From positions 1,738,501-1,802,500 of the forward strand of contig NZ_JAUTBL010000001.1 in assembly GCF_030819275.1 (NCBI RefSeq): 64,000 nucleotides of DNA. Direction: 5' to 3'. Position numbers and translations under genes: made by a program. Every line of letters begins with the position of its first letter. The stretch's first letter is position 1. Positions 26,837 through 59,324 of the stretch are shown here, piece after piece. Source of the stretch: Agrobacterium larrymoorei. GTDB taxonomy: Bacteria; Pseudomonadota; Alphaproteobacteria; Rhizobiales; Rhizobiaceae. Below the pieces are notes generated by a model. It saw only the letters and a list, made by a program, of their open reading frames with translations, was not told the origin of the DNA and ran no database searches.

Positions 26837-26954
26837 GCGGGCAACGACCTTATGGCTGAGGGAGCGAGGCAGTGTTTCGCTGCGGCCACCTCTTTGACTT
26901 GAGAGGAAAATCCGTCCGATCGAGGCACCGGACGGCATGGTTGCGGCATGGCGC

Positions 26955-28058
26955 TCAGGCGGCCGCCTTGCGCTTGGCGTCCTCGCGCTCGCGGATGCCG
27001 TCGCGCACCAGCGGCAGGATGTATCGGCCGTAATCGACAGCGTCGTTATAATTGTCATAGCCGCGGATCGAGATCAGATCGCAGCCGAGATCGATGTAAT
27101 CGAGGATGGAGTCTGCGATGGTGCGGGGCGATCCAACAAGCGCCGTCGTCGCGCCGCTTGCATTGGTCGCGGTCACGGTGGGGTACCAGAGCGCCCGGTC
27201 ATGCACATCGCCGCGCTTGGCGATATCGAGAAGCCGTTGGGAACCGATATTGGCGGGCGTCGCCGCATTGAGAGGACTGCGGGAGAGACCCTTCTGGCGG
27301 TTGGCGTTCAACTGGTCGAGTACGCGATGCGCCTTCTCCCAGGCAAGGTCATCGGTCTCTGCCACGATGGGGCGGAAGGTGACCCAGATGCGCGGGCGAT
27401 CCGTTCTTCCCGCCTTTGCCGCTTCGGCATAGATACGGTCGATCTGTTCCTTGGTTTCTTTCAGCGGCTCACCCCACAGGCCGAAGATATCGCAGAGCGA
27501 ACCACCAATGCGGTAGGCCGCATCGGACGAGCCGCCAAGCGAGATCGGGATCACGCCATTGGTTGGACGAACAGCGCTGCGGAACTGCTTGAACTGGTAA
27601 TATTTGCCATCGAAGTCGAAGGGTTCTTTCGACGTCCATGCCAGCCGAAGAATGCGGATATACTCTTCCTGGCGCTCATAACGCTCTTCCTTATTAAGAA
27701 AGTCGCCCTCACGCGCCTGTTCTTCATCGCTGCCGCCGGCAATGAAGTGAACGACGACGCGTCCCCCACTCAGCTGGTCGAGCGTCGCAAGCGATTTGGC
27801 CGCAACTGTCGGGTAGACGGTGTTTGGCCTGAGCGCGACGATGATCTTGATGTTCTTGGTATGGGCCAGCACTGTGGCTCCGATCGTGAAGGGATCGAAT
27901 GACGACGAGGAGTAGGGGATGAGTGTGTAGTTGAATCCGTAGTCGTCCAGTGCACGCGCATAACGTTCCAAAAACTGTGGATCGACCGGCGCATCGGGAA
28001 TAGGGTTCAAATCATTGGACGCGTTGGGAAAACTGACGCTGATGAATTCCGCAGCCAT
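26955..28058 (-). CDS. LLM-class flavin monooxygenase (SsuD-like)
   Basis: A 367-residue LLM-class oxidoreductase (TLDQLSGGRVVVHFIAGGSDEEQ, PISLGGSSDAAYRIGG, TTALVGSPRTIADSILDYID). It probably cleaves or oxidises a sulfonate or sulfone using FMNH2 and oxygen. ATG 28058 follows AAGGAG, the best ribosome site in the region. It is first in an operon with the ACAD-like gene and the FMN reductase, and is preceded by strong promoter element A. Confidence 0.85.
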   Translation of the reverse strand: MAAEFISVSFPNASNDLNPIPDAPVDPQFLERYARALDDYGFNYTLIPYSSSSFDPFTIGATVLAHTKNIKIIVALRPNTVYPTVAAKSLATLDQLSGGRVVVHFIAGGSDEEQAREGDFLNKEERYERQEEYIRILRLAWTSKEPFDFDGKYYQFKQFRSAVRPTNGVIPISLGGSSDAAYRIGGSLCDIFGLWGEPLKETKEQIDRIYAEAAKAGRTDRPRIWVTFRPIVAETDDLAWEKAHRVLDQLNANRQKGLSRSPLNAATPANIGSQRLLDIAKRGDVHDRALWYPTVTATNASGATTALVGSPRTIADSILDYIDLGCDLISIRGYDNYNDAVDYGRYILPLVRDGIREREDAKRKAAA

Positions 28059-28092
28059 GGGAGCTCCTTGAGGTCTCTGTAAATCTGCATCA

Positions 28093-28142
28093 AGGCTAGA
28101 GGGACGGGAGCGAGCGAGGAAGACAGGTCTTTCTATTTCTAT
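28093..28142 (-). promoter_or_regulatory. Sulfur-promoter element copy A (strong)
   Basis: On the minus strand ATAGAAA followed by TAGAAAGACCTGTCTTCC (28118-28142) precedes a TAGCCT -10-like box (28093-28098) by 19 bp. The block contains the inverted repeat AAGAC-N2-GTCTT. The same 25-bp block, with 18-19 bp to the -10 box, recurs at 34.8 and 41.1 kb. It probably binds an activator over the -35 region of the LLM/ACAD/FMN-reductase operon. Confidence 0.75.
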
Positions 28143-28198
28143 GGAAATTGTAGAAAATATTGCCAGCCCGTCTCCCGCGAGCGAAAACCTCGCGGCCC

Positions 28199-29299
28199 CT
28201 ATTCCTGCCCTTCGTGATGTTGTGTGGCCCGCCATCCTAGAGAGGGAGCGACCGTGGTGACGAAATCCGTGAGCAATCTGATGTTTTCGGACAGTCTAAA
28301 GGCAGGAGGCAGGAACAGCACGAGTTCGTCTGCCGCTGCCAGTCCCGGATCACGGAAGACCTGCTCTATTACCTCATCAGGCTTGCCCTGAAAGACGGGA
28401 GAAATCATTGCTCCCGCGGGCGGGCCTGCAGGCGGCAACGCCCCCTTCGGACGCGATGCTCCGATCCCGGCCGTGCGCCGCTCGAGGTCATAGGCTGCAT
28501 AGGTCGCGCGCAGTTCCGGGGTCGTGCTCACCAGAATGGATGCCGCCACGGCAACCGGCGGCGGTGTCGTCTTCCAGAGGCGAAGCCAGTGGCTGCGATA
28601 AGCCTCGATGATCCTTGCCTGATAATGGCCGAAGCTTTCTCCGTCCTCCTGATCGTGCAGGACCGTTCCGCAAATCAGGCCGATGCCGAGTTCGGCGGCT
28701 TGGATCGCCGAGGCGATGCTGGAAGAGCCTTGCCGGATGCGGCTTCGCAAGCTGGGACTATGCGGCGTAACGCGCAACTCAGCCCCTGGAGCAGCGCCTT
28801 TGTCCTTCTCCGTAACAGTGTGCAGAACTTCCCCGGAGATGGCGGCGAGAAAGCGGGACTGACGACGCTTTGCCTCTGTTCTGGCGTCCGTCTCGACCGC
28901 GCCGAAAACGGCATCGAATGCCCCGTTCGCTCCCGTCGCAAGCGCAAGTTCCAGTCGACCGCCTATCAGAAGATCGGTGGTTCCTGCCGCCTCGGCCAAC
29001 AGGATGGGGTCTTGGTAGCGCATGGGAATGACGGCAGAGCCAAGCGTGATGTGGCGCGTATGTTGTCCGGCGGCCGCGAAGAAGGGCAGGGGCGAAGACA
29101 GGTAGTGGTCGAAATGGCGTTGATAAGCCCAGCCTGATTGATAGCCGAGCCGTTCGGCCTGCTTGAACAGTTCGATACCTTGCCTCAACCCTTCGGCCGG
29201 GCCGTCATCGTCATTGAACGACACCCGCGTATTGAAACCGAGCCGTTGCTTTGGCCGGAAGGAGGCGGGGAGGTTAAGAGACGGCGCCGCCATATTCAT
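28199..29299 (-). CDS. LLM-class flavin-dependent oxidoreductase
   Basis: A 366-residue luciferase-like monooxygenase of the alkanal-monooxygenase-like branch (GLRQGIELFKQAERLGYQSGW, HFDHYLSSPLPFFAAAGQHT, GSAVIPMRYQDPILLAEAAGT). It starts as ATGA overlapping the stop of the dual ATPase, so it is translationally coupled to the peptide-type importer. This suggests it acts on the imported compound. The C-terminus ends TQHHEGQE. Confidence 0.85.
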   Translation of the reverse strand: MNMAAPSLNLPASFRPKQRLGFNTRVSFNDDDGPAEGLRQGIELFKQAERLGYQSGWAYQRHFDHYLSSPLPFFAAAGQHTRHITLGSAVIPMRYQDPILLAEAAGTTDLLIGGRLELALATGANGAFDAVFGAVETDARTEAKRRQSRFLAAISGEVLHTVTEKDKGAAPGAELRVTPHSPSLRSRIRQGSSSIASAIQAAELGIGLICGTVLHDQEDGESFGHYQARIIEAYRSHWLRLWKTTPPPVAVAASILVSTTPELRATYAAYDLERRTAGIGASRPKGALPPAGPPAGAMISPVFQGKPDEVIEQVFRDPGLAAADELVLFLPPAFRLSENIRLLTDFVTTVAPSLGWRATQHHEGQE

Positions 29300-31015
29300 G
29301 CGGTGTACTCCTTCTGACGGGCAGGCCGGATAAAAGGTGCAGCGGACGTTCCAGCCGTACCGGAAGGGATCGAGTTCAGCAGTGATACGGTGTAGTCGTG
29401 CTTTGGATTGCCGAAGACGTCCGAAACGGTGCCGTGCTCGACGATGCGTCCCTTCTGCATGACCGAAACGGTATGCGCGAGTTGACGAACCAGCGCCAGA
29501 TCATGCGAGACGAAGACATAGGTCAGGCCGAGCTTTGCCTGGAGCGACAAGAGGACCTCGACAATATCGGCCTGGACGCTGACATCGAGAGCCGAGGTCG
29601 GTTCATCCAGCACGATCACGTCTGGTTTGAGAACGAGGGCGCGGGCGATCGCCACACGTTGACGCTGCCCGCCGGAAAGGGCGGAAGGCTTGCGCTGTAG
29701 CAGATGCTCGCTCAAGCCGACATCGGCAAGCGCTTGCCTGACGGCGGCATCGCGCTCTTCGCGCGTGCCGATCTGGAAACGGTCCAGCGGCTCGCGAACG
29801 AGCTGCTCGACCTTCCATGTGGGATCGAGCGATGTAAACGGGTTTTGATAGACAAGCTGAAGATGCCGCCATACGGATCGAAGCGACGAAACGTCCCTGC
29901 TGCTGACTTGCTCGCCTGCGACAGAGATCGACCCGTTTTCCGGCTCGTCCAGCCCCAGCAGCAGGCGGATGGTCGTCGTCTTGCCGGAACCGGATTCGCC
30001 GACAAGCGCGTGAGTCGTTCCGGCGGGCAACCGAGAAGGAGATATTGTCCACCGCCGTCAAGATCTTGCCATCGACGGAAAAGCGCTTGGTCACGCCGTT
30101 GACCGAGATTTTCGTCTTACCCTTATCGCCGAGGCGATCGAAACCGGGATCGCGTAAGGTCGCATAGCGGCTCGGATTGAGCGCGGGAACGTCGCCATGC
30201 AGCTTCCGGGCATAGGACGAGGTTGGTGAGGAGAAGACGGCAGATGTTCGCCCCGCCTCCTGTACGGCACCGTTCTTCAACACGATCAGGCTTTCGGCCC
30301 GTTCTGCCGCGATCGCAAGATCATGGGTGATGAGCAGCATGCTGATGTTCATGTCTTCCTTCAACCGCGACAGCAAGTCGAGAATGCGTTTCTGCACGGT
30401 GACGTCGAGCGCCGAGGTCGGCTCGTCGGCGACCAGAAGCGAAGGCCGTGGCAGGATCGCGAGGGCGATCAGCACGCGTTGCAGCATGCCGCCTGAAAGC
30501 TGGTGCGGATAGGACTCGAAGACGCGTTGCGGGTTGTCGAGACCGACCTTTGCCAAAGTATCGAGGATCAGCGATTTGCGCGCCGCCGGGTCTGCTTGAT
30601 CGGACAACGCAGCAGCCTCCTGAGCCTGTGATCCGATCGTCCTCACGGGGTTCAGCGCGTTCGCCGGGTCCTGCGGAACAAAGCCTATGTCACGGCCTCG
30701 AAGTGGCCTGAAACGACGCTCCGAAAGTCCGAGAATATTCTCCTTTTCGAAGAGGACACGACCGGAGGCGCTTGCCCCATTGGGCAGAAGCCTGAGCACC
30801 GCCTTGGCGATCGTGGATTTGCCAGAGCCTGATTCTCCGATCAGGGCGAGGCTCTCGCCCTGCCGGATCTCGAAGCCGACACGATGGACGACTTCTTGCC
30901 GGCCATAGGAGACCGAGAGCTCTTCCACTTTCAGCAGAGATGTCGCAGGCACGAGTGTTGGAGCGGTGAAATCGGTTTTCTGAAAGACGGGTCTCAATGC
31001 GATTTGCGAAGCCAT
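29296..31015 (-). pseudogene. Dual-domain peptide-type ABC ATPase, frameshifted
   Basis: Two tandem ABC ATPase domains in one chain, as in GsiA (glutathione) and YejF. Domain 1 has GESGSGKST, LSGGMLQRVLIALAI and LLVADEPTSALD; domain 2 has [24 protein letters not shown] and VIVLDEPTSALD. The start is ATG 31015 (MASQIALRPVFQ), overlapping the permease end by 22 bp. The frame breaks near 30025-30033, between AVDNISFSV and PAGTTHALVG, by one extra base. The reconstructed protein has 572 residues. Either the sequence has an error or the importer lacks its second ATPase domain. Confidence 0.8.
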
Positions 31016-31839
31016 CGGCTGATCCTGTTTGCAGAGAGGACGGTCACGATCGTTACGAACGCGGGCGCATAAACGAGCCAGGGCCATTTGAGATAGTCCT
31101 TGCCGATCGAGATCAGCAGGCCCCAGTCGGATGAGGGTGGTGGGTCGCCGTAGCCAAGGAAGGCAAGGCTGGCGATGACGAGAATGGACTCGCCGAATTG
31201 CAGCACCGCAAGCGGCAGCATGGAGCGGGACGCATTTGGAAGAACGTGGCGAAGGACGATGAAGCCGCGCGAGCCACCGAGCAGAAAGGACGCCTCCACA
31301 AAGGTAGCCTGACGCGTCTTCATCACTTCGGCGCGTGCGACGCGGGCAAAAAAGGCAATGGCCGATATGCCCGTTGCAATCGCTGCGTTGATGGTCTCGA
31401 AGCCGATGGCGGTCACGACGATGACGGCAAGCAGGAATTTCGGGATCGACAGCAGCACATCGACAAAACGGGCGAAAACGACATCGACCCACCCCCCGAA
31501 GAAGCCTGCGAGAAGGCCGATCACCCCTCCGATGACCACACCGATGATGACGGCCACGAGCGCGCTGGAGACGGATGATGCCGTGCCATAAACCACACGC
31601 GAATAGACATCGCGTCCCAGATGATCCGTTCCGAACCAGTGCTCTAGACTCGGTGCGAGCAGCTTGTCTGCCGGAACGCCATTAATAGGGCTGTGGCTGG
31701 TGAAGAGTTGCGGCGCGACCGACCAGGCCATGACGATTGCGATGACCAGAAAGGAAAGCGCGACGGTCGCCGGGATGTTGAGACCTTTCAGTCGTTCCAG
31801 CGGACTGGCAGCGGAGATAGTATCGGAAAAAAGGCTCAT
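30994..31839 (-). CDS. Peptide-type ABC permease (DppC/GsiD family)
   Basis: A 281-residue BPD_transp_1 permease of the DppC/OppC/GsiD class (HWFGTDHLGRDVYSRVVYGT is the family hallmark; EASFLLGGSRGFIVLRHVLP is the ATPase-contact EAA loop). It has six membrane helices. It overlaps the neighbouring permease by 4 bp and the ATPase gene by 22 bp. Confidence 0.92.
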   Translation of the reverse strand: MSLFSDTISAASPLERLKGLNIPATVALSFLVIAIVMAWSVAPQLFTSHSPINGVPADKLLAPSLEHWFGTDHLGRDVYSRVVYGTASSVSSALVAVIIGVVIGGVIGLLAGFFGGWVDVVFARFVDVLLSIPKFLLAVIVVTAIGFETINAAIATGISAIAFFARVARAEVMKTRQATFVEASFLLGGSRGFIVLRHVLPNASRSMLPLAVLQFGESILVIASLAFLGYGDPPPSSDWGLLISIGKDYLKWPWLVYAPAFVTIVTVLSANRISRWLRKSH

Positions 31840-32846
31840 GGCTTTGCTCCTGCTTCCAGTGCGGGGGCAGCGTCATTGGCGACCCTCTGGCGGCGCTTGC
31901 GGTCGACGATGAGTTTCACCCTCGGATCGAGAAGCGGATAGAGAAGATCTGCGATCAGGTTGACGACGACGAAGACGACAGCGCCGAGCGATACGATGGC
32001 TTGCAGAACCGGCAGGTCCTGCGTGCTGACCGATCGTTGCACCAGGCTGCCGATCCCTGTGCGCCCGAAGACGGTCTCGGTGATCAGAGAATTACCGAGA
32101 AGTTCGCCCACTGTGAGCGCGATCACGGTGACGACTGGAAGTGCAGCGGGCTTCAGAAGATGGCTGGTGAAGAGGCGAGAGGGAGGGATGCCGCGACTGC
32201 GGGCGACGGCTGCATAATCCTGCTCAGCTTCGTGATCGAGATTGGCGATCAGCACTTCGGCGATCTGTGCGGAAAACGGGATACCGATAGTGACGGCGGC
32301 GAAGAAAGTCGCCCAGAAACTGTCCGGCTCGATAACGCGAAACAGTCTCAGCTGAAAGCCGAAGAGGTGGATAAGGAACAAACCGATGACGAAATTCGGC
32401 GTCGATAGAAACAGCGAGGGAAAGGCGCGCAGCACTCCTTGCCCGTACTTCTTCGGCACCACCTGCGTTCCATAAGCCACTGCGAAGGCCAAGGTCAGTG
32501 CCACTGCAATGCCCGAGGCGGCAAGGACCAGCGTTGAAGGCAGGACCTCGGTGATCAGCGTCGAAACCGGCCGGTTGGAGCGCATCGACATGCCGAGATC
32601 GCCGGTCAGAAAGGCCGAAAGCGAATTCCAGAGCTGGACGAGGATCGGCTTGTCCAAGCCTTGCGCTGCAATGATTTCGGCGATTTCCTGTTCGGTAAAG
32701 CCGTTTTGCGGATTGCGCAGCACGCTGGTGATCGGGTCGCCAGGCAGGATGCTGACGACGACGAAGGTGAAGACATAGGCCAGAAGGATGACGATGATCG
32801 CCTGGCCGAGCCGCTTGGCGGCGTAGGTAAGGTATGCGTTGCTCAT
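31836..32846 (-). CDS. Peptide-type ABC permease (DppB/GsiC family)
   Basis: A 336-residue DppB/OppB/GsiC permease: N-terminal block VVSILPGDPITSVLR, six helices, and the EAA region (YAAVARSRGIPPSRLFTSHL). It ends in a polar tail (VANDAAPALEAGAKP). It lies 23 bp after the binding-protein gene. Confidence 0.92.
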   Translation of the reverse strand: MSNAYLTYAAKRLGQAIIVILLAYVFTFVVVSILPGDPITSVLRNPQNGFTEQEIAEIIAAQGLDKPILVQLWNSLSAFLTGDLGMSMRSNRPVSTLITEVLPSTLVLAASGIAVALTLAFAVAYGTQVVPKKYGQGVLRAFPSLFLSTPNFVIGLFLIHLFGFQLRLFRVIEPDSFWATFFAAVTIGIPFSAQIAEVLIANLDHEAEQDYAAVARSRGIPPSRLFTSHLLKPAALPVVTVIALTVGELLGNSLITETVFGRTGIGSLVQRSVSTQDLPVLQAIVSLGAVVFVVVNLIADLLYPLLDPRVKLIVDRKRRQRVANDAAPALEAGAKP

Positions 32847-32869
32847 AGCGTCACCTCCTGGCTTTCATC

Positions 32870-34534
32870 TCACTCGGACAGGTCGGAAAGGTAGGCGGTG
32901 TAGTAGCTGGCATAGGCAATGCCGTTATAGACTTCGCCCTTGAGCTTCGGTGACTGAACGTAGATGCGCTGAACGATCTGTGTCCGCGGAATGAAGTAGG
33001 CCTGCTCCAGAACATATTGCTGCAGCTTGTCGAGCAGCGGCTTGCGCTCTTCGATCGAGCCCGCGCCGGCGATCTTGTCGCGTAGTTCGTTCAGCACGCT
33101 GTCGCGCTCATCCAGTGCAAACCAGTTTTCACCATTATTGGCATTGGTCAGGATGCTGGCGACCGTGCCCGCGTCGATGAAGCTGCGCGTGACTTCGTAA
33201 GCTGGAACCGCAGACCCGCCGAATTTGACCTTTTCGCCGAAGGTCACGACGTCGTAAGCGCGGATATTCACCTTCCAGCCCACCTTGCCAAGCTGCTGGG
33301 CAATCAGCTCATCGACCGACTTGGAGGTTGCAAGATAGGGGTTGGAGTGAAGGGTGATCTCCAGCGGTTTGCCATCCTTGACGCGCACGCCGTTGGCACC
33401 CTTTACCCAGCCCGCTTCATCCAGAAGCTTTTCCGCCTTGTCGGGGTTATAGGCGAGCAGGTCGCTATGGTCGGTCGCGCCTGGCACATTGCTTTGAATG
33501 AACGAGGTCGCGAGCTTCCAGTCCGGTGTATAAACGGTGTCGATGATCTCCTGGCGGTTGATCGCCGCCTGAAGCGCCTGGCGAACCTTCACATCGTCGT
33601 AAGGCGCAAGCTTGGTATTGACCGCCCAACCATTGACGAAGCCGAGATAGCGCGGCGTGGCGATTGTAAAGCCTTCTTCCTTCAGCGACTTCAGTTCCTG
33701 GGGAGAGGCATTATAGGCGACATCTGCCTGGCCGGACTGAACCGATGCCACGCGAAGCGACGGCTCGGAAACGAGCTTATAGGTAATGCTGTCGAGATAG
33801 GCAGGACCCGTATGGCCGACCGCAGCCGGTCCCCAGTTGTAATCCTTGCGCTTGACGAGGGTGACATGATCGCCCTCCTTCCAGCTTTTCACCACATAGG
33901 GGCCGCTGCCAACCGTTTTGCTGAGGTCCGCCTGCACGCTCGCAGGCTGGGCGATCGTCTTGGGAGAGATGAGGATCGAGCCGTGATAGCCGAGCGTCGG
34001 AATGAAGCCGAGCGTTGGCTTCTTGAAGAAGACCTTCACCGTTTTCGCATCCACGGCTTCGGCACGGTCATAGGTTTTGGGGAAGAGGCCGATCGGGTTG
34101 ATGCCTTCGTTCTTGCGGCCCGCATACCAGATGTTCAGATTGGCAACGACGGCATTCGCGTCCAGGGGTTCGCCATCCGAAAAGGTCACGCCGCTCTTCA
34201 GGTGAAGCGTGAACTCCGTCGCCGTGTCGTTCTGCTCCCACTTCTCAGCGATCCACGGGCTCACCTTGCCCTCGGCATCGACATAGACCAGCTTGTCGGT
34301 GACATGGCCCCAGATGTGGCCCTGAAAGCTCGATATGGCGCTGTTGTTGGGAATCCATGTATCGCCGAGGGAGTCGATAAGGAATGTGATATCGCCGCCA
34401 TCATGCGGGCGGTCCGCTGCCTGTGCTGGCAGCGGTGCGGTGGCCGAAAGGAAGAGCGCCGCGGAGGCTGCGATCGACGCCGTGACCAGCAGCTTGCGTC
34501 GGGAAAAAGAAGGCAGTGAGAGATGTCTGACCAT
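32870..34534 (-). CDS. Peptide-type ABC substrate-binding protein
   Basis: A 554-residue periplasmic binding protein of the SBP_bac_5 (DppA/OppA/GsiB) family. The twin-arginine-like n-region SRRKLLVTA leads a signal peptide ending near AQAAD. Family blocks include WIPNNSAISSFQGHIWGHVT, TEFTLHLKSGVTFSDGEPL and AYNPDKAEKLLDEAGW. ATG 34534 follows AGGA at 7 nt. Given the sulfur context the ligand may be a sulfur-containing peptide or glutathione-like molecule; this is inference from neighbours. Confidence 0.88.
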   Translation of the reverse strand: MVRHLSLPSFSRRKLLVTASIAASAALFLSATAPLPAQAADRPHDGGDITFLIDSLGDTWIPNNSAISSFQGHIWGHVTDKLVYVDAEGKVSPWIAEKWEQNDTATEFTLHLKSGVTFSDGEPLDANAVVANLNIWYAGRKNEGINPIGLFPKTYDRAEAVDAKTVKVFFKKPTLGFIPTLGYHGSILISPKTIAQPASVQADLSKTVGSGPYVVKSWKEGDHVTLVKRKDYNWGPAAVGHTGPAYLDSITYKLVSEPSLRVASVQSGQADVAYNASPQELKSLKEEGFTIATPRYLGFVNGWAVNTKLAPYDDVKVRQALQAAINRQEIIDTVYTPDWKLATSFIQSNVPGATDHSDLLAYNPDKAEKLLDEAGWVKGANGVRVKDGKPLEITLHSNPYLATSKSVDELIAQQLGKVGWKVNIRAYDVVTFGEKVKFGGSAVPAYEVTRSFIDAGTVASILTNANNGENWFALDERDSVLNELRDKIAGAGSIEERKPLLDKLQQYVLEQAYFIPRTQIVQRIYVQSPKLKGEVYNGIAYASYYTAYLSDLSE

Positions 34535-34672
34535 GATGTAGTCCTGAGTGAAATATTGAAAATCTTGGGATGATCTGGCTGTCGAACGGCCCCGCAAAGC
34601 ATGCGAATGTCCGTCCCCGCCGCGCACGCGACGAGATGTCGAAAGCCCATCGATGAAAGGAAGAGCGTGCTG

Positions 34673-34744
34673 TTAGCGCTGGCCAGAACGTGTCGAACGC
34701 TTGCCAGCGTTAAGAGCGCGCTCGCTTCTACATAGTTCGGTCAT
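34673..34744 (-). CDS. 23-codon leader ORF before the peptide-type importer
   Basis: ATG 34744 follows AAGGGGG at about 7 nt and the frame ends with TAA at 34673, encoding MTELCRSERALNAGKRS and six more residues. It lies inside the predicted leader, about 140 nt before the binding-protein start. Its second half overlaps two alternative hairpins. A leader peptide controlling downstream expression (for example through a Cys codon) is possible. The size and unknown family keep confidence moderate. Confidence 0.5.
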   Translation of the reverse strand: MTELCRSERALNAGKRSTRSGQR

Positions 34745-34783
34745 GAGCAGCCCCCTTGCGTTGATGGGTTTATCTTGACGCCT

Positions 34784-34832
34784 AATCTAACAGTGACGCG
34801 GCAGAGAGAAAGACTGGTTGTTCTTTTTCTAT
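34784..34832 (-). promoter_or_regulatory. Sulfur-promoter element copy B (strong)
   Basis: On the minus strand ATAGAAA then AAGAACAACCAGTCTTTC (34808-34832) is followed after 18 bp by TAGATT (34784-34789). It aligns base for base with copies A and C over 25 bp with few mismatches. It would drive the peptide-type importer operon and lies 53 bp after the stop of the bisC-like gene. Confidence 0.72.
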
Positions 34833-34884
34833 AGTTTTAGGGGATTAATTTGCCGCCATTTTCGCTGCTGGTTGGATTGCTGTT

Positions 34885-37251
34885 TCAGCGCCGGTTGGAA
34901 CCAGTGCCGGCCGGCTTTGAGGCGTATCGGCGTGAGACCGCCAATTTCTCGTCGCCCGTTCCGAAAGTGATGGCCTCGAAGATTCTCACCTTCGGCGGTT
35001 CGCCCGCATAGCGCTCGACCTCGACCCTGGCGATCTGGCCGGTCGAGCCCTGTGCGAGTTTCGAGGTGCCGATATCGCGGGTCAGAATGTTGGGGTTGCC
35101 GTGGATGCACATCGTGCGCTTTGCCGCGGGATCGTCCGGCTCGAACCAGGCACCCGTCGAAAGCTGCAGAACGCCTGGCTTCACGTCGTCGCTCAAGAGC
35201 GCGCCTGCGAGGCAACTGCCTCTTGCATTGAAGAGCCGGACAATATCGCCCTCGGAAATACCGCGTCGGCTGGCGTCCTCCGGATGAATACGAACGGGCT
35301 CTCGGTCTTTGATCTTGTTGGAACGGCTGAAATCGCCATAGTCGAGCTGGCTGTGAAGCCGCTGCCGGGGCTGGTTGCAGACGAGGTGAAGCTGATAGAG
35401 ATCTGCTTCACCTTCAGTTTCGCTTCGCGCCGGGTACCAGCGTGGATGGCCCTTGCAGTCGTCATAACCGAAGCTCTCGACCGTCCTTGAGAATATCTCG
35501 ATCTTTCCCGAAGGTGTCGGCAGCGGCGCGGCCTCCGGATCTGCCCGAAAGGCATGGGCCGGGCCGCCATCATCAGCCTTCGTCGGCAGGACAAGCTCGC
35601 CGCGCTGCCAGAACGTTTCGAAATCCGGCGCGTCGTGGCCCTGCGCTTCCAGCGCCGAGCGGGTTGTTTCGTAGAGAAAGGCCAGCCATTCGCGGCTGCT
35701 GCGCCCTTCGGTAAACTTATCTGACTTTCCGAGTTGCTGCGCGATTCCGGCGAAGATATCGTAATCGTCTCTTGCCGCACCGACGGGATCGATCAGCCGT
35801 TTCATTGCGATCATCAGCGGGTCGCGGTCTGCAGCGCCGATATCGTCACGTTCCAGCGTGGTTGTGGCCGGAAGCACGATGTCGGCATGTCGCGCCGTCG
35901 ACGTCCAGGCAGACTCGTGAACGATGATCGTCTCAGGACGCTTGAATGCCGCACGCAGGCGATTGATATCCTGATGGTGATGAAACGGATTGCCACCCGC
36001 CCAATAGACCAGACGGATATCCGGATAGCGTAAGCTGTGGCCGTTATAGTGAAACTCTCCGCCGGGATCGAGAAGCATATCGGCGATCCGGGCGCAGGGA
36101 ATATAATCTGCGACAGGATTTTTGAACTGGTTGAGTGTCGGTAGAGGAACCGCCAGCAGCGTCTTGCCGATATTGCCAAGCGCGCCGAGCGAGTAGGAAA
36201 AGCCGCCGCCATCGAGCCCGATCTGGCCGAGCATCGCTGCCAGCACGATCCCCATCCACACCGGCTGTTCGCCAAAATCGGCTCGCTGGAGCGAGTGACT
36301 GACGGTGATCAGGGTGCGGTTACTTGCCATTCTTCGCGCAAGGGCTCGGATCGTTTCAGCATCGATCCCACAGATTGAGGCTGCCCAGTCCGCGCTCTTC
36401 GGCCGGCCGTCTTCTTTTCCCAGAAGATACGTCTCGAACGTGTCGTATCCCACGGTGTAGCGCCGGAGAAATGCGTGATCATGTAGCCTTTCGGTAACAA
36501 GCGTGTATGCCAAGCCAAGTATAAGCGCGACGTCGGTGCCGGGTGTGATCGCCAGCCATTCAGGTTTCAGGTCTTCGGCAAAGTCGTCCCTCAAGGGACT
36601 CACGGAAACAAAGCGAGCGCCCCGCTTTTGGGCGCCCGTCAGCTTTTGCCGGACCAGATGCTGGCTGATGCCGCCGCCATGGACGTCGGCATTGCGGATC
36701 GCCATTCCGCCGAAGGCCAACACAAGTTCCGTGCTGCGCTCTATCGCGTCCCAGGTAACGCTCTTTCGGTCGAAGCTGTCATACGGTCCAAGGACATGCG
36801 GTATGATGACCATCGCCGCGCCTGAACTATAGGTGTTGACGGACCGTACATAGCCGCCCAGCACGTTCAAGAAGCGATGGATCTGGCTCTGCGCATGGTG
36901 AAATCGCCCCGCACTTGCCCAGCCATAGGAACCGCCAAACACTGAAGCCGGGCCATGGCGACCATAAATGCGGGCAAGCTCTGCCGCAACGAGCGCTTCC
37001 GCCTGTTCCCAGGACACTTCCACGAACTCGTCGGCGCCGCGCCGGTCTCTGTGATTGCTACCGGCTTCCAGCCATCCGCGTCGGACCGCGGGATTTCGGA
37101 CACGCGCAGGACTGTCTGCAATGGCAGGCAGATTACCGAGCAGGGGCGAGGGGTAAGGATCACCTTCGTGCGGTCTGATATCCAAACGGCCATTGGCAAG
37201 GCGTCCGGAAAAAGCGCCCCAGTGAGAACTGTGGGATTTGAAGACGTTCAT
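34885..37251 (-). CDS. bisC: Molybdopterin S/N-oxide reductase (BisC/TorA type)
   Basis: A 788-residue cytoplasmic member of the DMSO reductase family, of the length and order of biotin/methionine sulfoxide reductase BisC. It lacks a Tat signal and the N-terminal Fe-S cysteines. The Mo-ligand serine is probably Ser142 in NTYSSGAAM. Cofactor-binding blocks include VFGGSYGWASAGRFHHAQSQ, VYWAGGNPFHHHQD and HESAWTSTARHADIVLPATT. In this context it probably reduces a sulfoxide or related oxide. It is last in a five-gene minus-strand run, 25 bp after the FAD oxidase gene. Confidence 0.85.
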   Translation of the reverse strand: MNVFKSHSSHWGAFSGRLANGRLDIRPHEGDPYPSPLLGNLPAIADSPARVRNPAVRRGWLEAGSNHRDRRGADEFVEVSWEQAEALVAAELARIYGRHGPASVFGGSYGWASAGRFHHAQSQIHRFLNVLGGYVRSVNTYSSGAAMVIIPHVLGPYDSFDRKSVTWDAIERSTELVLAFGGMAIRNADVHGGGISQHLVRQKLTGAQKRGARFVSVSPLRDDFAEDLKPEWLAITPGTDVALILGLAYTLVTERLHDHAFLRRYTVGYDTFETYLLGKEDGRPKSADWAASICGIDAETIRALARRMASNRTLITVSHSLQRADFGEQPVWMGIVLAAMLGQIGLDGGGFSYSLGALGNIGKTLLAVPLPTLNQFKNPVADYIPCARIADMLLDPGGEFHYNGHSLRYPDIRLVYWAGGNPFHHHQDINRLRAAFKRPETIIVHESAWTSTARHADIVLPATTTLERDDIGAADRDPLMIAMKRLIDPVGAARDDYDIFAGIAQQLGKSDKFTEGRSSREWLAFLYETTRSALEAQGHDAPDFETFWQRGELVLPTKADDGGPAHAFRADPEAAPLPTPSGKIEIFSRTVESFGYDDCKGHPRWYPARSETEGEADLYQLHLVCNQPRQRLHSQLDYGDFSRSNKIKDREPVRIHPEDASRRGISEGDIVRLFNARGSCLAGALLSDDVKPGVLQLSTGAWFEPDDPAAKRTMCIHGNPNILTRDIGTSKLAQGSTGQIARVEVERYAGEPPKVRIFEAITFGTGDEKLAVSRRYASKPAGTGSNRR

Positions 37252-37276
37252 TGTGACCTCTCACCCTCACGGGAGT

Positions 37277-38662
37277 TCAAGCGCGCTGTCCGGCCAGAAT
37301 TTTTCCGGGATTCATGATTCCAGCGGGATCGACAGCCTGCTTGATGACCGCCATCAGATCGACCGCATCGCCATGTTCTTCGCGAAGATAGGCGATCTTG
37401 CCGGTGCCGACGCCATGCTCGCCGGTGGAGGTGCCGCCTGCCGATAGCGCGTAGCGAACCATCTTCTTGTTGATTGCCGCGACCTCGGCAAGCTCTTCGG
37501 CGTTGGTCGGATCGACCGCGAAGACGACGTGGTAATTGCCGTCCCCCACATGCCCGAGAATAGCGGCTGGAACGCTGCATTCCTTCAAGAGCTCTCTTGT
37601 AGCGACGATGCAGTCGCCGAGCTTCGAGACCGGCACACAGACATCCGATGACCAGCCCTTGGCGTTCGGTCTCTGCGATACTACAGCATAAAAAGCGTTA
37701 TGGCGGGCCTTCCATAGCCGCTTACGCTCCTCAGGGGCGTTTGCCCATTCGAAGTCCTGTCCGCCATTCTCTTGGACGATTGACGACACCATCTCGACCT
37801 GTTCCTGCACGCCCGCAGGCGAGCCATGAAACTCAAAGGCCAACGTGTCGCGGATTTTGAGATCGAGTCCTGAATAGTCGTTCACGGCTTTGATCAGTCC
37901 GCGATCCATCAATTCCATGCGCGCCACAGGGATGCCGAGCTGCACGACCTGGATGGCTGTCGCGACCGCCTGATCGACACTTTCGAACGAGCAAAGCGCT
38001 GCCGAGATGGTCTCCGGTATGCCGTAAAGGCGAAGCGTGATCTCGGTGATGATCCCGAGTGTGCCTTCCGAGCCGACGAAAAGCCGCGTCAGATCGTAAC
38101 CTGCCGAGGATTTTCGTGCCCGGCCGCCAGTCTTGATGATCTGTCCGCTCGGCAGCACCACCGTCAGCCCGAGAACGTTTTCGCGCATGGTGCCATAGCG
38201 CACCGCATTGGTGCCGGAGGCGCGGGTGGCGGCCATGCCGCCGAGTGAGGCATTGGCGCCAGGATCGATTGGGAAAAACAATCCCATATCCCGCAGGTCA
38301 GCATTCAGTTGCTCCCTCGTCACCCCGGCCTCTACGGAGCAATCCAGATCTTCCGGGCTGACACGGAGGATTTTCGCCATGCGTGAAAGATCGATGGATA
38401 CGCCCCCTTGAACTGCAGCGAGATGTCCTTCCAACGAAGTCCCCGCACCAAAGGCGATAACCGGCACGTTCTCTTCCGCGCAGAGCCTGACGATCTTCGA
38501 CACTTCCTCAGTGGTTTCGGCAAAGACGACGGCATCGGGAAGGGCGGCTGCGTGATGGGCTTCGCCTTGCCCGTGTTGCTCCCGCAGAGCAGTCGACGTG
38601 GAAAATCGCTCGCCAAGCAAACTCTGCAAGGATTGCGAGAGGGCGGTGGACAATCTGGTCAT
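37277..38662 (-). CDS. FAD-linked oxidase, D-lactate dehydrogenase-like
   Basis: A 461-residue member of the GlcD/LDHD/VAO family: FAD_binding_4 domain (VPVIAFGAGTSLEGHLAAVQ; FPIDPGANASLGGMAATRAS) and FAD-oxidase C-terminal domain with the metal/substrate motif HVGDGNYH and SGGTSTGEHGVG. Such enzymes oxidise 2-hydroxy acids such as D-lactate or glycolate. In a sulfur operon a sulfo- or thio-substituted hydroxy acid is conceivable. It lies 78 bp after the isomerase gene. Confidence 0.88.
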   Translation of the reverse strand: MTRLSTALSQSLQSLLGERFSTSTALREQHGQGEAHHAAALPDAVVFAETTEEVSKIVRLCAEENVPVIAFGAGTSLEGHLAAVQGGVSIDLSRMAKILRVSPEDLDCSVEAGVTREQLNADLRDMGLFFPIDPGANASLGGMAATRASGTNAVRYGTMRENVLGLTVVLPSGQIIKTGGRARKSSAGYDLTRLFVGSEGTLGIITEITLRLYGIPETISAALCSFESVDQAVATAIQVVQLGIPVARMELMDRGLIKAVNDYSGLDLKIRDTLAFEFHGSPAGVQEQVEMVSSIVQENGGQDFEWANAPEERKRLWKARHNAFYAVVSQRPNAKGWSSDVCVPVSKLGDCIVATRELLKECSVPAAILGHVGDGNYHVVFAVDPTNAEELAEVAAINKKMVRYALSAGGTSTGEHGVGTGKIAYLREEHGDAVDLMAVIKQAVDPAGIMNPGKILAGQRA

Positions 38663-38740
38663 GAATCATTCCACTAGATGCGAAACGTCGGCCGCTCTCT
38701 TGAGGTAGACGGGCTGCCAACGCCTTCGCTATGTTGCCGT

Positions 38741-39343
38741 TCAGGCTGCGAGACGTTCACCTTGAAGATGGCGGTCCAGGAATGGAAGGCTGTCCTGACC
38801 CCAGTAGAGCTCATCCTCATAGCGGTAGGTCGGCACGCCGAAGACACCTGCCGCCTTGGCGGTTTCGTAGCTTGCCTTCAGTTGCGCCTCTATTGCCGGG
38901 CTTTGTCCGAGTTCGTCCAAGGCGGCACCATCGAAGCCCGCTTGATCGGCAATCGCGCGTCGAATGGCCGAATTGCCGATATCTTCGCCGCGCACCCAGA
39001 ATGCCTCTTGCAGCGCCAGCGTCAAAGTGAGCCAGTCTTGCCCGGCCTCGATAGCGGCCGCTACGAGAGCACCAGCCGGTGTCGGATCGGCAAGAGCCGC
39101 CCGGTTGTCGAAGCTAAGCCGCTTACCGCGCAAAGCGGCCCAGCGTTTGAGGTCTTTCACCCAATAGGCCCGGCGTATCTCTGGCCGGTTGCGGGAATAG
39201 ATGGCGCCATTTTCCTCGATCAGCGGAATGACATGGGGCTTGATGGTCGCGCCGTGTCTATTTGCCAGTGCCACAAAGGGCTCAAGGCCGATGAAGGCCC
39301 AGGGTGAACCGATGCTGAAGAAGTAATCGATGGTCTTTGTCAT
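38741..39343 (-). CDS. DsbA-fold HCCA-isomerase/GST-kappa-like protein
   Basis: A 200-residue thioredoxin-like DsbA-family protein of the 2-hydroxychromene-2-carboxylate isomerase / kappa glutathione transferase type. The active-site region is DYFFSIGSPWAFIGLE, with Ser in place of the CxxC motif, and the cis-Pro motif is GVFGVPTY. These proteins use glutathione as cofactor. ATG 39343 overlaps the TetR stop; the ATG at 39346 sits too close to the AGG ribosome site. Confidence 0.85.
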   Translation of the reverse strand: MTKTIDYFFSIGSPWAFIGLEPFVALANRHGATIKPHVIPLIEENGAIYSRNRPEIRRAYWVKDLKRWAALRGKRLSFDNRAALADPTPAGALVAAAIEAGQDWLTLTLALQEAFWVRGEDIGNSAIRRAIADQAGFDGAALDELGQSPAIEAQLKASYETAKAAGVFGVPTYRYEDELYWGQDSLPFLDRHLQGERLAA

Positions 39344-39924
39344 CATGCCTGCTTTCTATGGGTCTGGAGAAGAGGGGAGGCCGTATCGAAAACGGCAAGC
39401 GCGCAATCGCGCGCCAGCAGGACGGCCTGTGGATCGCGCCCGACGGCAACGGTCGCAAGCGCTCCCTCGTAGAGAAGTGAGAGATGGGCGGCAGCCAGAT
39501 CATCGAGGATTTCTGCCTTGCCCAGAACGACGGAGAAAATGTCGCGGACCATTGCCTTGTGACGCCGGGCGACCGAGCAGACTTTCTCGGATTCGCCGTG
39601 TTCGGCGACGGCGAGCGCGAAGGCGCAGCCGCGAAAATCCGGGCTGTCCGCTTTCTCATAGAGCCGTTCGAAGATCGATTGGATTTGCTCTCTGGGAGAC
39701 AGCGCGGAGGATAGAACCTCGGTCAGAGACTGTATAACCCGCTCATGGCGCGCTGAAAGATAGGCGGCAACGAGATGATCCTTGGAGGGGAAGTGGCGGT
39801 AAAGCGTGGCCTTCGCGACCTTCGCCTCCTCGATGATGCGGTCGATGCCGACGGCCCTGATGCCCTCGCGATAGAAAAGGGTGCCGGCCGCTGTGATAAT
39901 GTGGTCAGATATGGCTTCTTTCAT
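39343..39924 (-). CDS. TetR-family transcriptional regulator
   Basis: A 193-residue TetR-type repressor with the N-terminal HTH (ITAAGTLFYREGIRAVGIDR, IIEEAKVAKATLYRHFPSKD) and a C-terminal ligand domain. It is embedded in the operon between the ketopantoate-reductase-like and isomerase genes, 9 bp after the former and overlapping the latter. This suggests it controls the operon in response to its substrate. No operator could be singled out. Confidence 0.88.
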   Translation of the reverse strand: MKEAISDHIITAAGTLFYREGIRAVGIDRIIEEAKVAKATLYRHFPSKDHLVAAYLSARHERVIQSLTEVLSSALSPREQIQSIFERLYEKADSPDFRGCAFALAVAEHGESEKVCSVARRHKAMVRDIFSVVLGKAEILDDLAAAHLSLLYEGALATVAVGRDPQAVLLARDCALAVFDTASPLLQTHRKQA

Positions 39925-39933
39925 TGCACCACT

Positions 39934-40998
39934 TCACGCTGCCGAATTGAAATTACTGGTAACTGTACGCCCTGGATGTATTGCAGGGCCTCCACGGGCC
40001 GGTTCTTCGCTCCGATCCAGTAGCGCGGCAATCGTCTCCAGCGGCAGCGGTTTTGTGAACTCGGCCTTTTCGGCAAGCTGACCTGCCAGACGTTGAACGG
40101 CTTCATTATGAGGGGTCAGAATACCGTGAAGACGCCCAAGAAGCACGATCTCGCCATTGAGGAAATCGACCTCGCTCGAGGCCCCCCGCGTAAAGCTTTG
40201 CCATGTCGATTGCTGGCCGGGAGCAACCCCGCTGTCGGGCGCGATACGCCAGTGGGAGATATCGATGCTACGCTCTGACGGTGATGCGAGAGTGTATCCC
40301 GCGGCGTGCAGTGCCTGCGTTGCCTCTTGAACGAGCGCCGTACTGATCTGTTCGCGAAGGGCAACGTCACCATCGAATAATTCCAGCACATTGCGGACAT
40401 TGTGGAGCAGCTTTGCTGCCTTCCACCGGGAAATATCGCTGACGGCTTCGGCCAGATATCCGGCCTTGGTGAGGTCGGCGGCGATCTGGTCGCTCAAGGC
40501 ATCGCGTCCTGCAGGAAAACGCCCGACCGTGACGATGCCAAGCTCAGGGTCTCCCGCGACTGCAACTGTGCCGGTCTCGGTGAAGAGGGCAGGCGTCAGA
40601 ATACTTGCCCCGTAAACATTGGCAAATGTTCGAAGAGCGGCAGCTTCGGTGGCAAGACCATTCTGGAACGTGACGATTGGCAGGGATAAGGCGGCCGGCA
40701 GGGGTGAGCCGGCGACGGCGCGCCACGACCAGTAAGCCAGCGCACCGGCGGCATCCTGGGACTTGACCGTGAGCAGGAGAATGTCGTCCTCCCGCAACTC
40801 TGGCGGCTCTGCCAGGTCAAAGGCCGCAAGGTTGATCTGTCGCACGCCCCCAGGTCTGCGGAACGTCAGGCCGTGGTGTTTGATGTGTCTGATTTGAGCG
40901 CCCCGCCCGACCAGGACATAATCAATTCCGGACAAGGCAAACTGGGCGGCCAGACTCGCGCCGACCGCGCCGGCTCCGATGATGACATAACGTGGCAT
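39934..40998 (-). CDS. Ketopantoate-reductase-family oxidoreductase
   Basis: A 354-residue ApbA/PanE-fold NAD(P)-dependent reductase: N-terminal Rossmann domain (YVIIGAGAVGASLAAQFALS), hallmark LTVKSQDAAGAL, and catalytic Lys region WKAAKLLHNVRN. It is longer than true PanE (about 300 residues), and its place first in a sulfur operon under element C argues for a different 2-oxo or hydroxy acid substrate. The start at ATG 40998 gives the canonical glycine-rich N-terminus. Confidence 0.82.
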   Translation of the reverse strand: MPRYVIIGAGAVGASLAAQFALSGIDYVLVGRGAQIRHIKHHGLTFRRPGGVRQINLAAFDLAEPPELREDDILLLTVKSQDAAGALAYWSWRAVAGSPLPAALSLPIVTFQNGLATEAAALRTFANVYGASILTPALFTETGTVAVAGDPELGIVTVGRFPAGRDALSDQIAADLTKAGYLAEAVSDISRWKAAKLLHNVRNVLELFDGDVALREQISTALVQEATQALHAAGYTLASPSERSIDISHWRIAPDSGVAPGQQSTWQSFTRGASSEVDFLNGEIVLLGRLHGILTPHNEAVQRLAGQLAEKAEFTKPLPLETIAALLDRSEEPARGGPAIHPGRTVTSNFNSAA

Positions 40999-41041
40999 TT
41001 GAAGCCTTCTGCTTTGGTGGGCGATCAGGGTGAGTAGATGA

Positions 41042-41091
41042 AATCTACGATCACGCCAGCAACCTAGGAAGACCGGTCATTCTATTTCTAT
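41042..41091 (-). promoter_or_regulatory. Sulfur-promoter element copy C (strong)
   Basis: On the minus strand ATAGAAA then TAGAATGACCGGTCTTCC (41067-41091) is followed after 19 bp by TAGATT (41042-41047), 44 bp before the ketopantoate-reductase-like start. It differs from copy A at only three of 25 positions, and the palindromic core GACCGGTC is perfect here. Confidence 0.75.
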
Positions 41092-41232
41092 CAAATTGGT
41101 GGAATAATCTTCCGCGACGGCCTTCGAAGGAGGGATTGGGTTCTTCGACGCTCCCGCGATAAGGTTTGTCAGCGCGCCGATAATGACAATGATGTGCTTT
41201 CCGATCGCAATACTGCCGGAAGGCGCGCGCGA

Positions 41233-45475: not shown

Positions 45476-45738
45476 GAGTGGTTCTCCATGTGATATCTCA
45501 TGACATTCAATTTATGTAATCTATTCATTTTATAGAGAGATGAGCGGCCGCTTATCGCCTTATCTTTGGGCGTAACATTCTAAATTTTCGCGTATCTGCA
45601 GGAGAAATTTCGCAACACCGCACTCGGTGGTACCAACTTGGGGTGCAGGCCCCGAGGCTGGGTAGCGGAGTTGGATGGAGTGAGCCTCAGTCAATAATTT
45701 CGCGGTGCTATCACCCTGTTGGAGATCAATCTTCATTG

Positions 45739-46815: not shown

Positions 46816-47262
46816 GCCGTCATCCTGAATGTCATTATCTGTGAATTTCGCGAGGCGATTGCCTCACAATGAAAGCATTCCAGACGACAGGCAGAGCAAC
46901 CAAGCAGGGCAATCCAAATTGGTGACGGTCCGAGGAAAGGAATTTGCTGCGTCCGGGCCTTGGCAGTAAATTCTACCGATTTTATATGTTTTTGTGGCAT
47001 TCGCTTTGATGACGGCGTCAAGCGGTGGCGATTGCCCGCTGCCCTTGCGCCTGACCAGCCGTCAGAGCGTCGTGCGAGGGTTCATTTCAATAAATCGACG
47101 CATTGCGCTTTTCGAAAATCGATCTCCCGATAACGGCGAAACATCTCTGAGACCACTTTTCGACTGTTTTATTCCAAAGCCCGCGCGAACTTTAGAAAGG
47201 GGCACCTTTCAGAAATTGATCAAAATCATAGATTGACTCCATTCTTTTAAAGGGAGCAGACT
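46816..47262. other. Divergent intergenic region with sulfur-promoter element D
   Basis: This 447-bp region separates the divergent LLM gene and ssu cluster 2. No coding frame is supported. Near the right end the plus strand carries TAGAAAGGGGCACCTTTC (47193-47210), 18 bp, then TAGATT (47229-47234), matching the layout of the stronger elements. The core is also a 6-bp inverted repeat GAAAGG-GGCA-CCTTTC. The promoter of the leftward LLM gene was not identified. Confidence 0.45.
47193..47234 (+). promoter_or_regulatory. Sulfur-promoter element copy D (moderate)
   Basis: TAGAAAGGGGCACCTTTC plus 18 bp plus TAGATT, 29 bp before the ssuA start codon of cluster 2. It shares TAGAAAG, the C(T)TTC end, the spacing and the exact -10 box with copies B and C, but not the ATAGAAA extension. 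Confidence 0.5.
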
Positions 47263-54007: not shown

Positions 54008-54050
54008 GAAAAAGCGGTTCCTTTCTCCCAAAACGAATTAAATCTACTAA
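54008..54050 (+). promoter_or_regulatory. Sulfur-promoter element copy E (weak)
   Basis: GAAAAAGCGGTTCCTTTC, 19 bp, TACTAA, 34 bp before the metQ-like start. It keeps the A-rich start, the CTTTC end and the spacing, but has a poorer -10 match. The rest of 53794-54083 holds no supported gene. Confidence 0.35.
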
Positions 54051-54083
54051 TTTTCTATACAAATAAATTTTGAAGGGGCTTCC

Positions 54084-56669: not shown

Positions 56670-56704
56670 TCAGGCGAGTTGGCAAGGCAGGCAGGAGTAC
56701 AACA

Positions 56705-57955: not shown

Positions 57956-57958
57956 GAT

Positions 57959-59191: not shown

Positions 59192-59324
59192 TCTAGTCCT
59201 GGCCGCGTTGTCATTGATGCGTCCAGTAACATGAACCCGACGACGTCTCTCTAAATCTCTATTTTCGCAATTCCAATTGGAAAATCGATTGCCCGCTGGA
59301 AACGCTTCAACTTCTGGGAAAGTC

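What the first reader, a model, noticed from the sequence alone, without database searches (positions are those of the whole stretch)
28093..41091. A conserved 25-bp promoter element plus -10 box at three sulfur operons
Seen directly: on the minus strand, copies A (28118-28142), B (34808-34832) and C (41067-41091) align over 25 bp with few mismatches. Each starts ATAGAAA, contains a GACCNGTC-like core and ends CTTCC/CTTTC. At 18-19 bp downstream each has TAGCCT, TAGATT or TAGATT. There is no TTGACA-like -35 box. The genes driven differ completely (LLM monooxygenase operon, peptide-type importer, ketopantoate-reductase-like operon), so the similarity is not simple gene duplication. This is the signature of an activator-dependent regulon. 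A LysR-type CysB/Cbl-like regulator is the obvious candidate but none is encoded in the window.
Basis: partly seen in the sequence, partly recalled or inferred. Interest (0 to 1): 0.85.

Follow-up and report, generated by a model that had tools for sequence, protein, structure and literature searches.

The report
Two-part switch at sulfur operons
Three sulfur-scavenging operons in an Agrobacterium-like soil bacterium share a conserved promoter element that seems to be two regulator sites side by side, one probably for a general sulfur-starvation regulator and one probably for a local TetR-type regulator encoded in one of the operons.

Summary
In detail: the three 25-bp blocks are where stated and are the only copies (up to 3 mismatches) in the 4.88-Mb genome. 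Relatives (115 non-redundant sites) show that the conserved element is about 45 bp and composite. IR1, consensus TTCTAY-N7-RTAGAA, is a LysR-type-like inverted repeat near -60. IR2, AGAAnGACCnGTCnTTCT, is a palindrome near -40 that overlaps the -35 region. IR2 without IR1 lies upstream of the tetR gene in several lineages. IR1 without IR2 is enriched near other sulfur genes, and three more such boxes are in the window. Best model: a starvation-responsive LysR-type activator at IR1 and the co-encoded TetR protein, most likely a repressor, at IR2. Main caveat: four of 50 motif genomes lack the TetR ortholog yet keep the site. Binding and effectors are untested.

The parts
28137..28155 (-). Site A, IR1: TTCTA-N9-TAGAA inverted repeat (LysR-type T-N11-A geometry)
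   Evidence: 41.2 bits; highest of 15 simulated windows 15.2
28117..28134 (-). Site A, IR2: AGAAAGACCTGTCTTCCT palindrome, proposed TetR operator overlapping the -35 region
28093..28098 (-). Site A -10-like hexamer TAGCCT; CA at 28087/28086 as predicted transcription start
   Evidence: positional conservation only
26955..28058 (-). LLM monooxygenase (SsuD/SfnG-like, below their cut-offs), first gene behind site A; followed by acyl-CoA-dehydrogenase/SfnB-like (25658-27058) and FMN reductase (25049-25609)
34827..34845 (-). Site B, IR1: right arm TAGAA intact, left arm ATCCC degenerate
   Evidence: 29.0 bits
34807..34824 (-). Site B, IR2: AGAACAACCAGTCTTTCT
34784..34789 (-). Site B -10-like hexamer TAGATT
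32870..34627 (-). SBP_bac_5 substrate-binding protein (TIGR04028-like, below its cut-off), first gene behind site B; real start perhaps near 34534. Followed by two permeases, two ABC ATPases and an LLM protein (28199-29299)
41086..41104 (-). Site C, IR1: TTCCA-N9-TAGAA
   Evidence: 29.1 bits
41066..41083 (-). Site C, IR2: AGAATGACCGGTCTTCCT
41042..41047 (-). Site C -10-like hexamer TAGATT
39934..40998 (-). ApbA/PanE-like reductase, first gene behind site C
39343..39924 (-).
34885..39346 (-). Rest of operon C: DsbA-like (38741-39346), FAD-linked oxidase (37277-38662), BisC/TorA-like molybdopterin S/N-oxide reductase (34885-37251)
46970..46995 (-). IR1-only box upstream of LLM monooxygenase 45739-46815
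   Evidence: (19.3 bits, above every simulated maximum)
45513..45538 (.). IR1-only box upstream of an ssuA-like gene (44462-45475), with ssuB-like, ssuC-like and NtaA/DmoA-family LLM genes downstream
   Evidence: (19.2 bits)
54036..54061 (+). IR1-only box upstream of NlpA lipoprotein, ABC ATPase, permease, two acyl-CoA dehydrogenases and LLM genes (54084-60695)
   Evidence: (17.4 bits)

Best explanation
Each of the three promoters carries two adjacent regulator sites plus a weak sigma-70-type core (CTTCCT/CTTTCT at -35, TAGnnT at -10). IR1 (TTCTAY-N7-RTAGAA, centre about -60) is the recognition site of a LysR-type activator that serves a wider sulfur-scavenging regulon in Rhizobiaceae and whose gene lies elsewhere in the genome. 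IR2 (AGAAnGACCnGTCnTTCT, centre about -40, right arm over the -35) is the operator of the TetR-family protein encoded in the operon behind copy C. Proposed logic: under sulfur limitation the LysR-type protein recruits RNA polymerase, while the TetR protein occludes the -35 until a pathway metabolite (probably an organosulfur compound or its product) releases it. The TetR gene is autoregulated through copy C. Shown computationally: the sites, their symmetry and conservation, and their linkage to the TetR gene and to sulfur-type genes. Inferred: protein binding, the sign of regulation, the effector, the transcription start, and the identity of the LysR-type protein.
For: (1) In 115 non-redundant sites, picked with a 26-bp matrix of the block, parts outside that matrix are also conserved: the left IR1 arm (exact TTCTA in 62 of 115; TTCTA, TTCCA, ATCTA or ATCCA in 93) and a TA at the -10 place (66 of 115 in register, 42 more one base off). 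(2) TetR orthologs (67-100% identity, then a gap to 39%) are in 17 of 394 family genomes. All 17 have the motif with at most 2 mismatches, against 3 of the other 377 (Fisher p = 4e-27). Both belong to one gene cluster, so this alone is linkage. (3) IR2 stands upstream of the tetR gene itself in 11 of 25 distinct cases (15 bits or more), against 0 of 231 upstream regions of nine other cluster genes. Thirteen such sites (two below 15 bits) lack IR1 (7 or more mismatches). This looks like autoregulation. (4) IR1 without IR2: 15 of 35 regions hold sulfur-type genes against 3 of 35 length-matched controls (p = 0.001); 12 of 31 after leaving out four regions near the main cluster (p = 0.004). They include one of three regions of G247 and the one of G169, genomes without the TetR ortholog. 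Both IR1-only hits of the own genome are near sulfur genes (FMN reductase, LLM, SsuB-like; rhodanese and sulfur transporter). (5) Three more IR1 boxes in the window precede sulfur operons. (6) In G247 the LLM_A promoter keeps IR1 but has lost IR2 (3.0 bits, against 17.9 or more in the other 36 rows). Weak support: the recognition helix VAKATLYRHF is at least 29 of 30 conserved at each position in orthologs, but 13 paralogs share most of it.
Against: Four of 50 genomes picked for the motif have no TetR ortholog (L084, L093, L121, L157) and keep the site. In the family sample G169 and G247 do so, and G183 with a 2-mismatch site that is probably chance. So the TetR gene was lost several times, or was missed in incomplete assemblies, or another protein uses IR2. 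TetR, SBP5 and LLM_A orthologs occur in nearly the same 17, 17 and 19 of 394 genomes, so motif and regulator could go together merely by sharing a cluster. In 13 of 25 tetR upstream regions the best IR2 match is below 12 bits, in part because tetR lies inside an operon whose first gene has the site. Of the four SBP5/LLM_A sites in G247 and G169 three keep IR2. The T of T-N11-A is T in only 75 of 115 sites, and site B has a poor left arm. Several IR1-only boxes (ssuA, the NlpA operon, L266, L270) lie only about 35-55 bp before a start codon, which does not fit a -60 activator site; the L267 box overlaps the start of the predicted rhodanese ORF. Twenty of 35 IR1-only regions held no sulfur-type relative by my measure. 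There are no expression or binding data.
Confidence: 0.6

Rival explanations
1. One LysR-type activator (CysB-, LsrB- or OxyR-like) binds the whole 45 bp as a tetramer, IR1 being its recognition site and IR2 its activation site. The TetR protein regulates something else. This is.
For: Centres near -60 and -40 are the usual LysR arrangement (recalled), and the total length fits. Four motif genomes without the TetR ortholog keep the site.
Against: IR2 occurs without IR1 upstream of the tetR gene in several lineages. IR1 occurs without IR2 near other sulfur-type genes.
Confidence: 0.22
2. The TetR-family protein alone binds both repeats as two dimers and is the only regulator, possibly an activator.
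For: All four arms of the consensus share an AGAA/TTCT half-site; some TetR proteins bind as two dimers (recalled).
Against: IR1 occurs near sulfur-type genes in G247 and G169, which have no TetR ortholog. The tetR-proximal sites lack IR1.
Confidence: 0.08
3. As in the best explanation, but the TetR protein activates at IR2 (class-II position near -40) rather than repressing.
For: The core promoter lacks a good -35 and IR2 is centred near -40.
Against: IR2 overlaps the only -35 candidate, and IR1 already supplies a candidate activator site. TetR-family activators are the minority (recalled).
Confidence: 0.08
4. The block is a core promoter of an alternative sigma factor, or an untranslated RNA element.
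For: Near-fixed spacing to the -10-like box.
Against: Two symmetric repeats; only some of the tetR-proximal IR2 copies have a TA-starting box 18 bp downstream (read by eye: L043, L080, L139); the predicted start lies downstream of the block.
Confidence: 0.02

Closest known systems
CysB/Cbl sulfate-starvation regulons (E. coli ssu, tau; recalled; passages of PMC12581299 for Pseudomonas)
   Same: A LysR-type regulator serving LLM monooxygenase, ssu-like and tau-like operons under sulfur limitation
   Different: No CysB-like protein reaches the NF009327 cut-off in this genome, and I know of no local TetR site there (recalled)
LsrB/OxyR of Agrobacterium tumefaciens (PMC11975290, passages)
   Same: LysR-type proteins reported to affect cys genes in a relative that lacks a close CysB; CTAT-N7-ATAG within IR1 resembles the inner half of an OxyR box (recalled)
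   Different: Studied for oxidative stress; a term search of the text found no 'consensus' or 'binding motif', and the passages seen do not mention these operons
TetR-family local repressors with short palindromic operators
   Same: Operator-like palindrome at the regulator's own gene and at neighbouring operons, overlapping the -35
   Different: This TetR reaches no NCBIfam cut-off among the families listed; its closest solved chain is a 'putative transcriptional regulator' (3g7r, 88 bits)

Membership tests
TetR-family regulator | N-terminal TetR helix-turn-helix domain over the Pfam cut-off | tested here: met
   PF00440, 55.4 bits against cut-off 24
TetR-family regulator | Binds a palindromic operator at its own or a neighbouring promoter | tested here: inconclusive
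   Operator-like IR2 sites found at the right places; binding itself not testable here
Named TetR subfamily (ScbR, FasR, AcuR and others) | Score over the NCBIfam cut-off | tested here: not met
   21 families listed, none over cut-off; best ScbR 47.2 bits against 150
LysR-type regulated promoter | T-N11-A inverted repeat | tested here: met
   Consensus TTCTAY-N7-RTAGAA; T in 75, A in 108 and both in 71 of 115 sites
LysR-type regulated promoter | Repeat centred about -60 to -65 from the transcription start | tested here: inconclusive
   About -60 if the predicted start is right; starts not mapped, and some IR1-only boxes lie too close to a start codon
LysR-type regulated promoter | A LysR-type protein shown to bind | not testable with these tools
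   38 LysR/CysB-type matches in the genome, none in the window; no binding data
CysB/Cbl regulon | A CysB/Cbl ortholog in the genome | tested here: not met
   No protein over the NF009327 cut-off; best 100 against 402 bits. Only this one model was tested
Sulfur-starvation regulon | Target genes for organosulfur uptake and desulfonation | tested here: inconclusive
   LLM, SfnB-like, FMN reductase, S/N-oxide reductase and ssu-like genes by Pfam/NCBIfam, but nearly all lie below equivalog cut-offs, so substrates are not assigned; response to sulfur not testable here

The most novel reading that the evidence does not exclude
Rhizobiaceae lacking a clear CysB use TTCTAY-N7-RTAGAA as a general sulfur-scavenging box read by an unidentified LysR-type protein. 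A patchily distributed organosulfur cluster couples this box to its own TetR operator, giving a two-input gate: general starvation AND a specific substrate.
Probability: 0.42. Interest if true: 0.65.

Novelty: new member of a known kind. Interest (0 to 1): 0.5.

Why it matters
My seven searches of an open-licence library listed no description of how Rhizobiaceae switch on these organosulfur operons. This gives two testable DNA sites, one concrete regulator gene and a target list, so the question can be addressed with a gel shift and one deletion. It also suggests a cluster-specific regulator plugged into a wider nutrient regulon.

Tried and rejected
Gene duplication as the cause of similarity: rejected; the first genes behind the three sites belong to different families, and about 45 bp stays conserved while the spacer diverges.

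A clean genetic test through SBP5 or LLM_A orthologs without the TetR gene: only two such genomes exist in the sample (G247, G169), so the test is weak. One of their four sites has lost IR2.

CysB search: one model only, nothing over cut-off. I listed ORFs at three of the 38 hits and found no reason to single one out. L266 carries a LysR-type gene about 1.4 kb upstream of an IR1 box; not followed further.

TetR orthologs in the order: only the own genome's at E <= 1e-35 among 317 sampled genomes.

Papers: searches listed no paper on this motif or this TetR. I saw passages of PMC11975290 and PMC12581299; all other papers only as listings. The library holds open-licence papers only.

Results against chance that need care. 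In one search the motif pattern at up to 3 mismatches matched in 31 of 394 genomes, but the reversed control also matched in 33 (my count of the table), so the 3-mismatch hits (11 genomes with nothing better, none with the TetR ortholog) are chance; I use only those with at most 2. The palindrome-only search also had many control hits, so I rely on position at tetR, not on genome counts. Of 20 ORFs scanned near IR1-only boxes many were unrelated to sulfur, for example a fatty-acid desaturase, a peptidase and an acetyltransferase.

Selection notes. The genome-contig scan found 116 stretches; 80 were listed and 50 of these loci were tested for the TetR gene. That set and the family sample overlap (equal contig lengths, for example Rhizobium sp. 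Leaf262, Leaf453 and NFR03), so they are not independent. L152 was left out. The profile was gathered with a 26-bp matrix, so conservation inside the block is partly by selection. The IR2 matrices were built from hand-listed variants. The first 20 IR1-only regions were picked by eye (13 of 20 with sulfur-type relatives); I then fetched the other 15 (2 of 15) and 15 more controls and report 15 of 35 against 3 of 35. These 35 regions hold all 37 non-composite places by my count. The controls are arbitrary stretches of the same contigs. Of the 37 promoter rows, two (L301, L360) are the same site. Of 13 extra composite sites listed, 10 downstream ORFs were scanned (two were cut short, one was the same genome).
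Full report
What was claimed and what is there. The three blocks are real, at the stated coordinates, and unique in the genome at up to 3 mismatches. They precede three co-oriented gene groups on the minus strand. C: ApbA-like, TetR, DsbA-like, FAD oxidase, BisC/TorA-like molybdoenzyme. B: SBP_bac_5 importer with two permeases, two ATPases and an LLM protein. A: LLM monooxygenase, SfnB-like acyl-CoA dehydrogenase, FMN reductase. The genome lies near Agrobacterium: locus L134, labelled Agrobacterium cavarae, carries proteins 92-99% identical to those of the window; the placement is an inference.

A regulator was missed. The second gene behind site C encodes a TetR-family protein (PF00440). It reaches no cut-off among the NCBIfam families listed, and its closest solved chain is a 'putative transcriptional regulator'. 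In 394 sampled genomes of the family, 17 have an ortholog at 67-100% identity, and the next hits fall to 39%. A looser form of the motif, TAGAAWWAGAANRACCNGTCTTYCT, occurs with at most 2 mismatches in 20 of the same 394 genomes: all 17 with the ortholog plus G247, G169 and G183 (Fisher p = 4e-27). At 3 mismatches the pattern is at chance level: 31 genomes against 33 for the reversed control (my count). A scan of one genome each of 84,980 species with an exact pattern found 116 stretches; of the 80 listed, 79 carry Rhizobiaceae or Rhizobiales names and one (L152) a Bacteroidetes name. Of 50 of those loci, 46 lie in genomes with the TetR ortholog (68% identity or more).

Anatomy. Gathering sites with a 26-bp matrix of the block gave 153 distinct sites, 115 after removing those 80% or more alike. 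Conservation extends beyond the matrix: upstream to about -19, and downstream to a TA-starting box after a variable spacer (TA in register in 66 of 115 and one base off in 42 more), with C and A favoured at +55 and +56 (65 and 57 of 115). Two inverted repeats are evident. IR1, consensus TTCTAY-N7-RTAGAA, has T-N11-A spacing (both letters in 71 of 115) and is centred 60 bp before the predicted start. IR2, AGAAnGACCnGTCnTTCT, is centred 39.5 bp before it, with its right arm over the -35 position. Site B has a poor left IR1 arm.

IR2 belongs with the TetR gene. Scanning 250 bp upstream of cluster genes with an IR2 matrix from hand-listed variants of the SBP5 and LLM_A promoters, 11 of 25 distinct tetR upstream regions reached 15 bits, against 0 of 231 for nine other genes; 13 of 25 stayed below 12 bits. 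Thirteen tetR-proximal sites (two of them below 15 bits) lack IR1. AGAAAGACTTGTCTTTCT, with perfect 8-bp arms, begins 75-119 bp before the tetR start codon in three genomes of one genus. The recognition helix is nearly invariant in 30 distinct orthologs, but 13 paralogs share most of it.

IR1 belongs to something wider. Sixteen genomes searched with an IR1-only pattern gave 80 matches (many are two-strand readings of one site, and many are the composite sites) against 8 for the reversed control (my addition of the table). Of 35 fetched regions that hold the non-composite hits, 15 contain relatives of organosulfur genes, against 3 of 35 length-matched stretches of the same contigs (p = 0.001). 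Four of the 35 regions lie near the main cluster; without them it is 12 of 31 (p = 0.004). Outside the composite sites the own genome has two such hits, both near sulfur genes (L266: FMN reductase, LLM, SsuB-like; L267: rhodanese and sulfur transporter, the box overlapping the predicted ORF start). Other neighbours include TauD and a sulfatase, but also genes with no evident sulfur role. A matrix from 112 non-window IR1 sequences finds three more boxes in the window above the maximum of 15 simulated windows, upstream of an LLM gene, an ssuA-like gene and an NlpA/ABC/acyl-CoA-dehydrogenase/LLM group. The window is rich in sulfur-type genes anyway, so their position is only mild support. Several boxes lie only 35-55 bp from a start codon, which the -60 activator picture does not explain.

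Against the model. Four of 50 motif genomes have no TetR ortholog and keep the site. Of 37 SBP5 and LLM_A promoter rows (17 SBP5, 20 LLM_A; two rows are one site), 36 have IR2 at 17.9 bits or more. The exception is the LLM_A promoter of G247, a genome without the TetR ortholog, which keeps IR1; but G247's other site and both sites of G169, also without the ortholog, keep IR2. Because SBP5, LLM_A and TetR orthologs occur together (17, 19 and 17 of 394 genomes), co-occurrence cannot by itself prove binding. The tetR-proximal sites are the stronger evidence.

Who binds IR1. No CysB-like protein reaches the one model tested. A 2025 study states that A. tumefaciens has only a distant CysB relative and suggests that LsrB and OxyR regulate its cys genes (PMC11975290, passages). 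These are leads, not tests.

Verdict. A real, conserved, composite promoter element with a probable local TetR operator and a probable LysR-type sulfur box.

Noticed in passing
L092, L099, L107, L139, L147, L149: Extra composite sites in other Rhizobiaceae precede a Peripla_BP_2 (PF01497) binding-protein gene: 6 of 10 downstream ORFs scanned; one other was a molybdopterin oxidoreductase and three had no match. A fourth target operon, perhaps metal or chelate uptake.
   Followed up: partly
   Followed up: partly
L152:1302-1326: A Bacteroidetes bin holds an exact pattern match with no relatives of the window's genes nearby; chance or contamination.
   Followed up: no
window:15208-15233 and window:24457-24482: Weaker IR1-like matches (11.4 and 10.1 bits, within the simulated range), the second just upstream of an NMT1-like gene (23585-24433).
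   Followed up: no
window:14546-17946: TonB receptor gene divergent from a Peripla_BP_2 gene, the same protein family as the fourth target operon in relatives.
   Followed up: no
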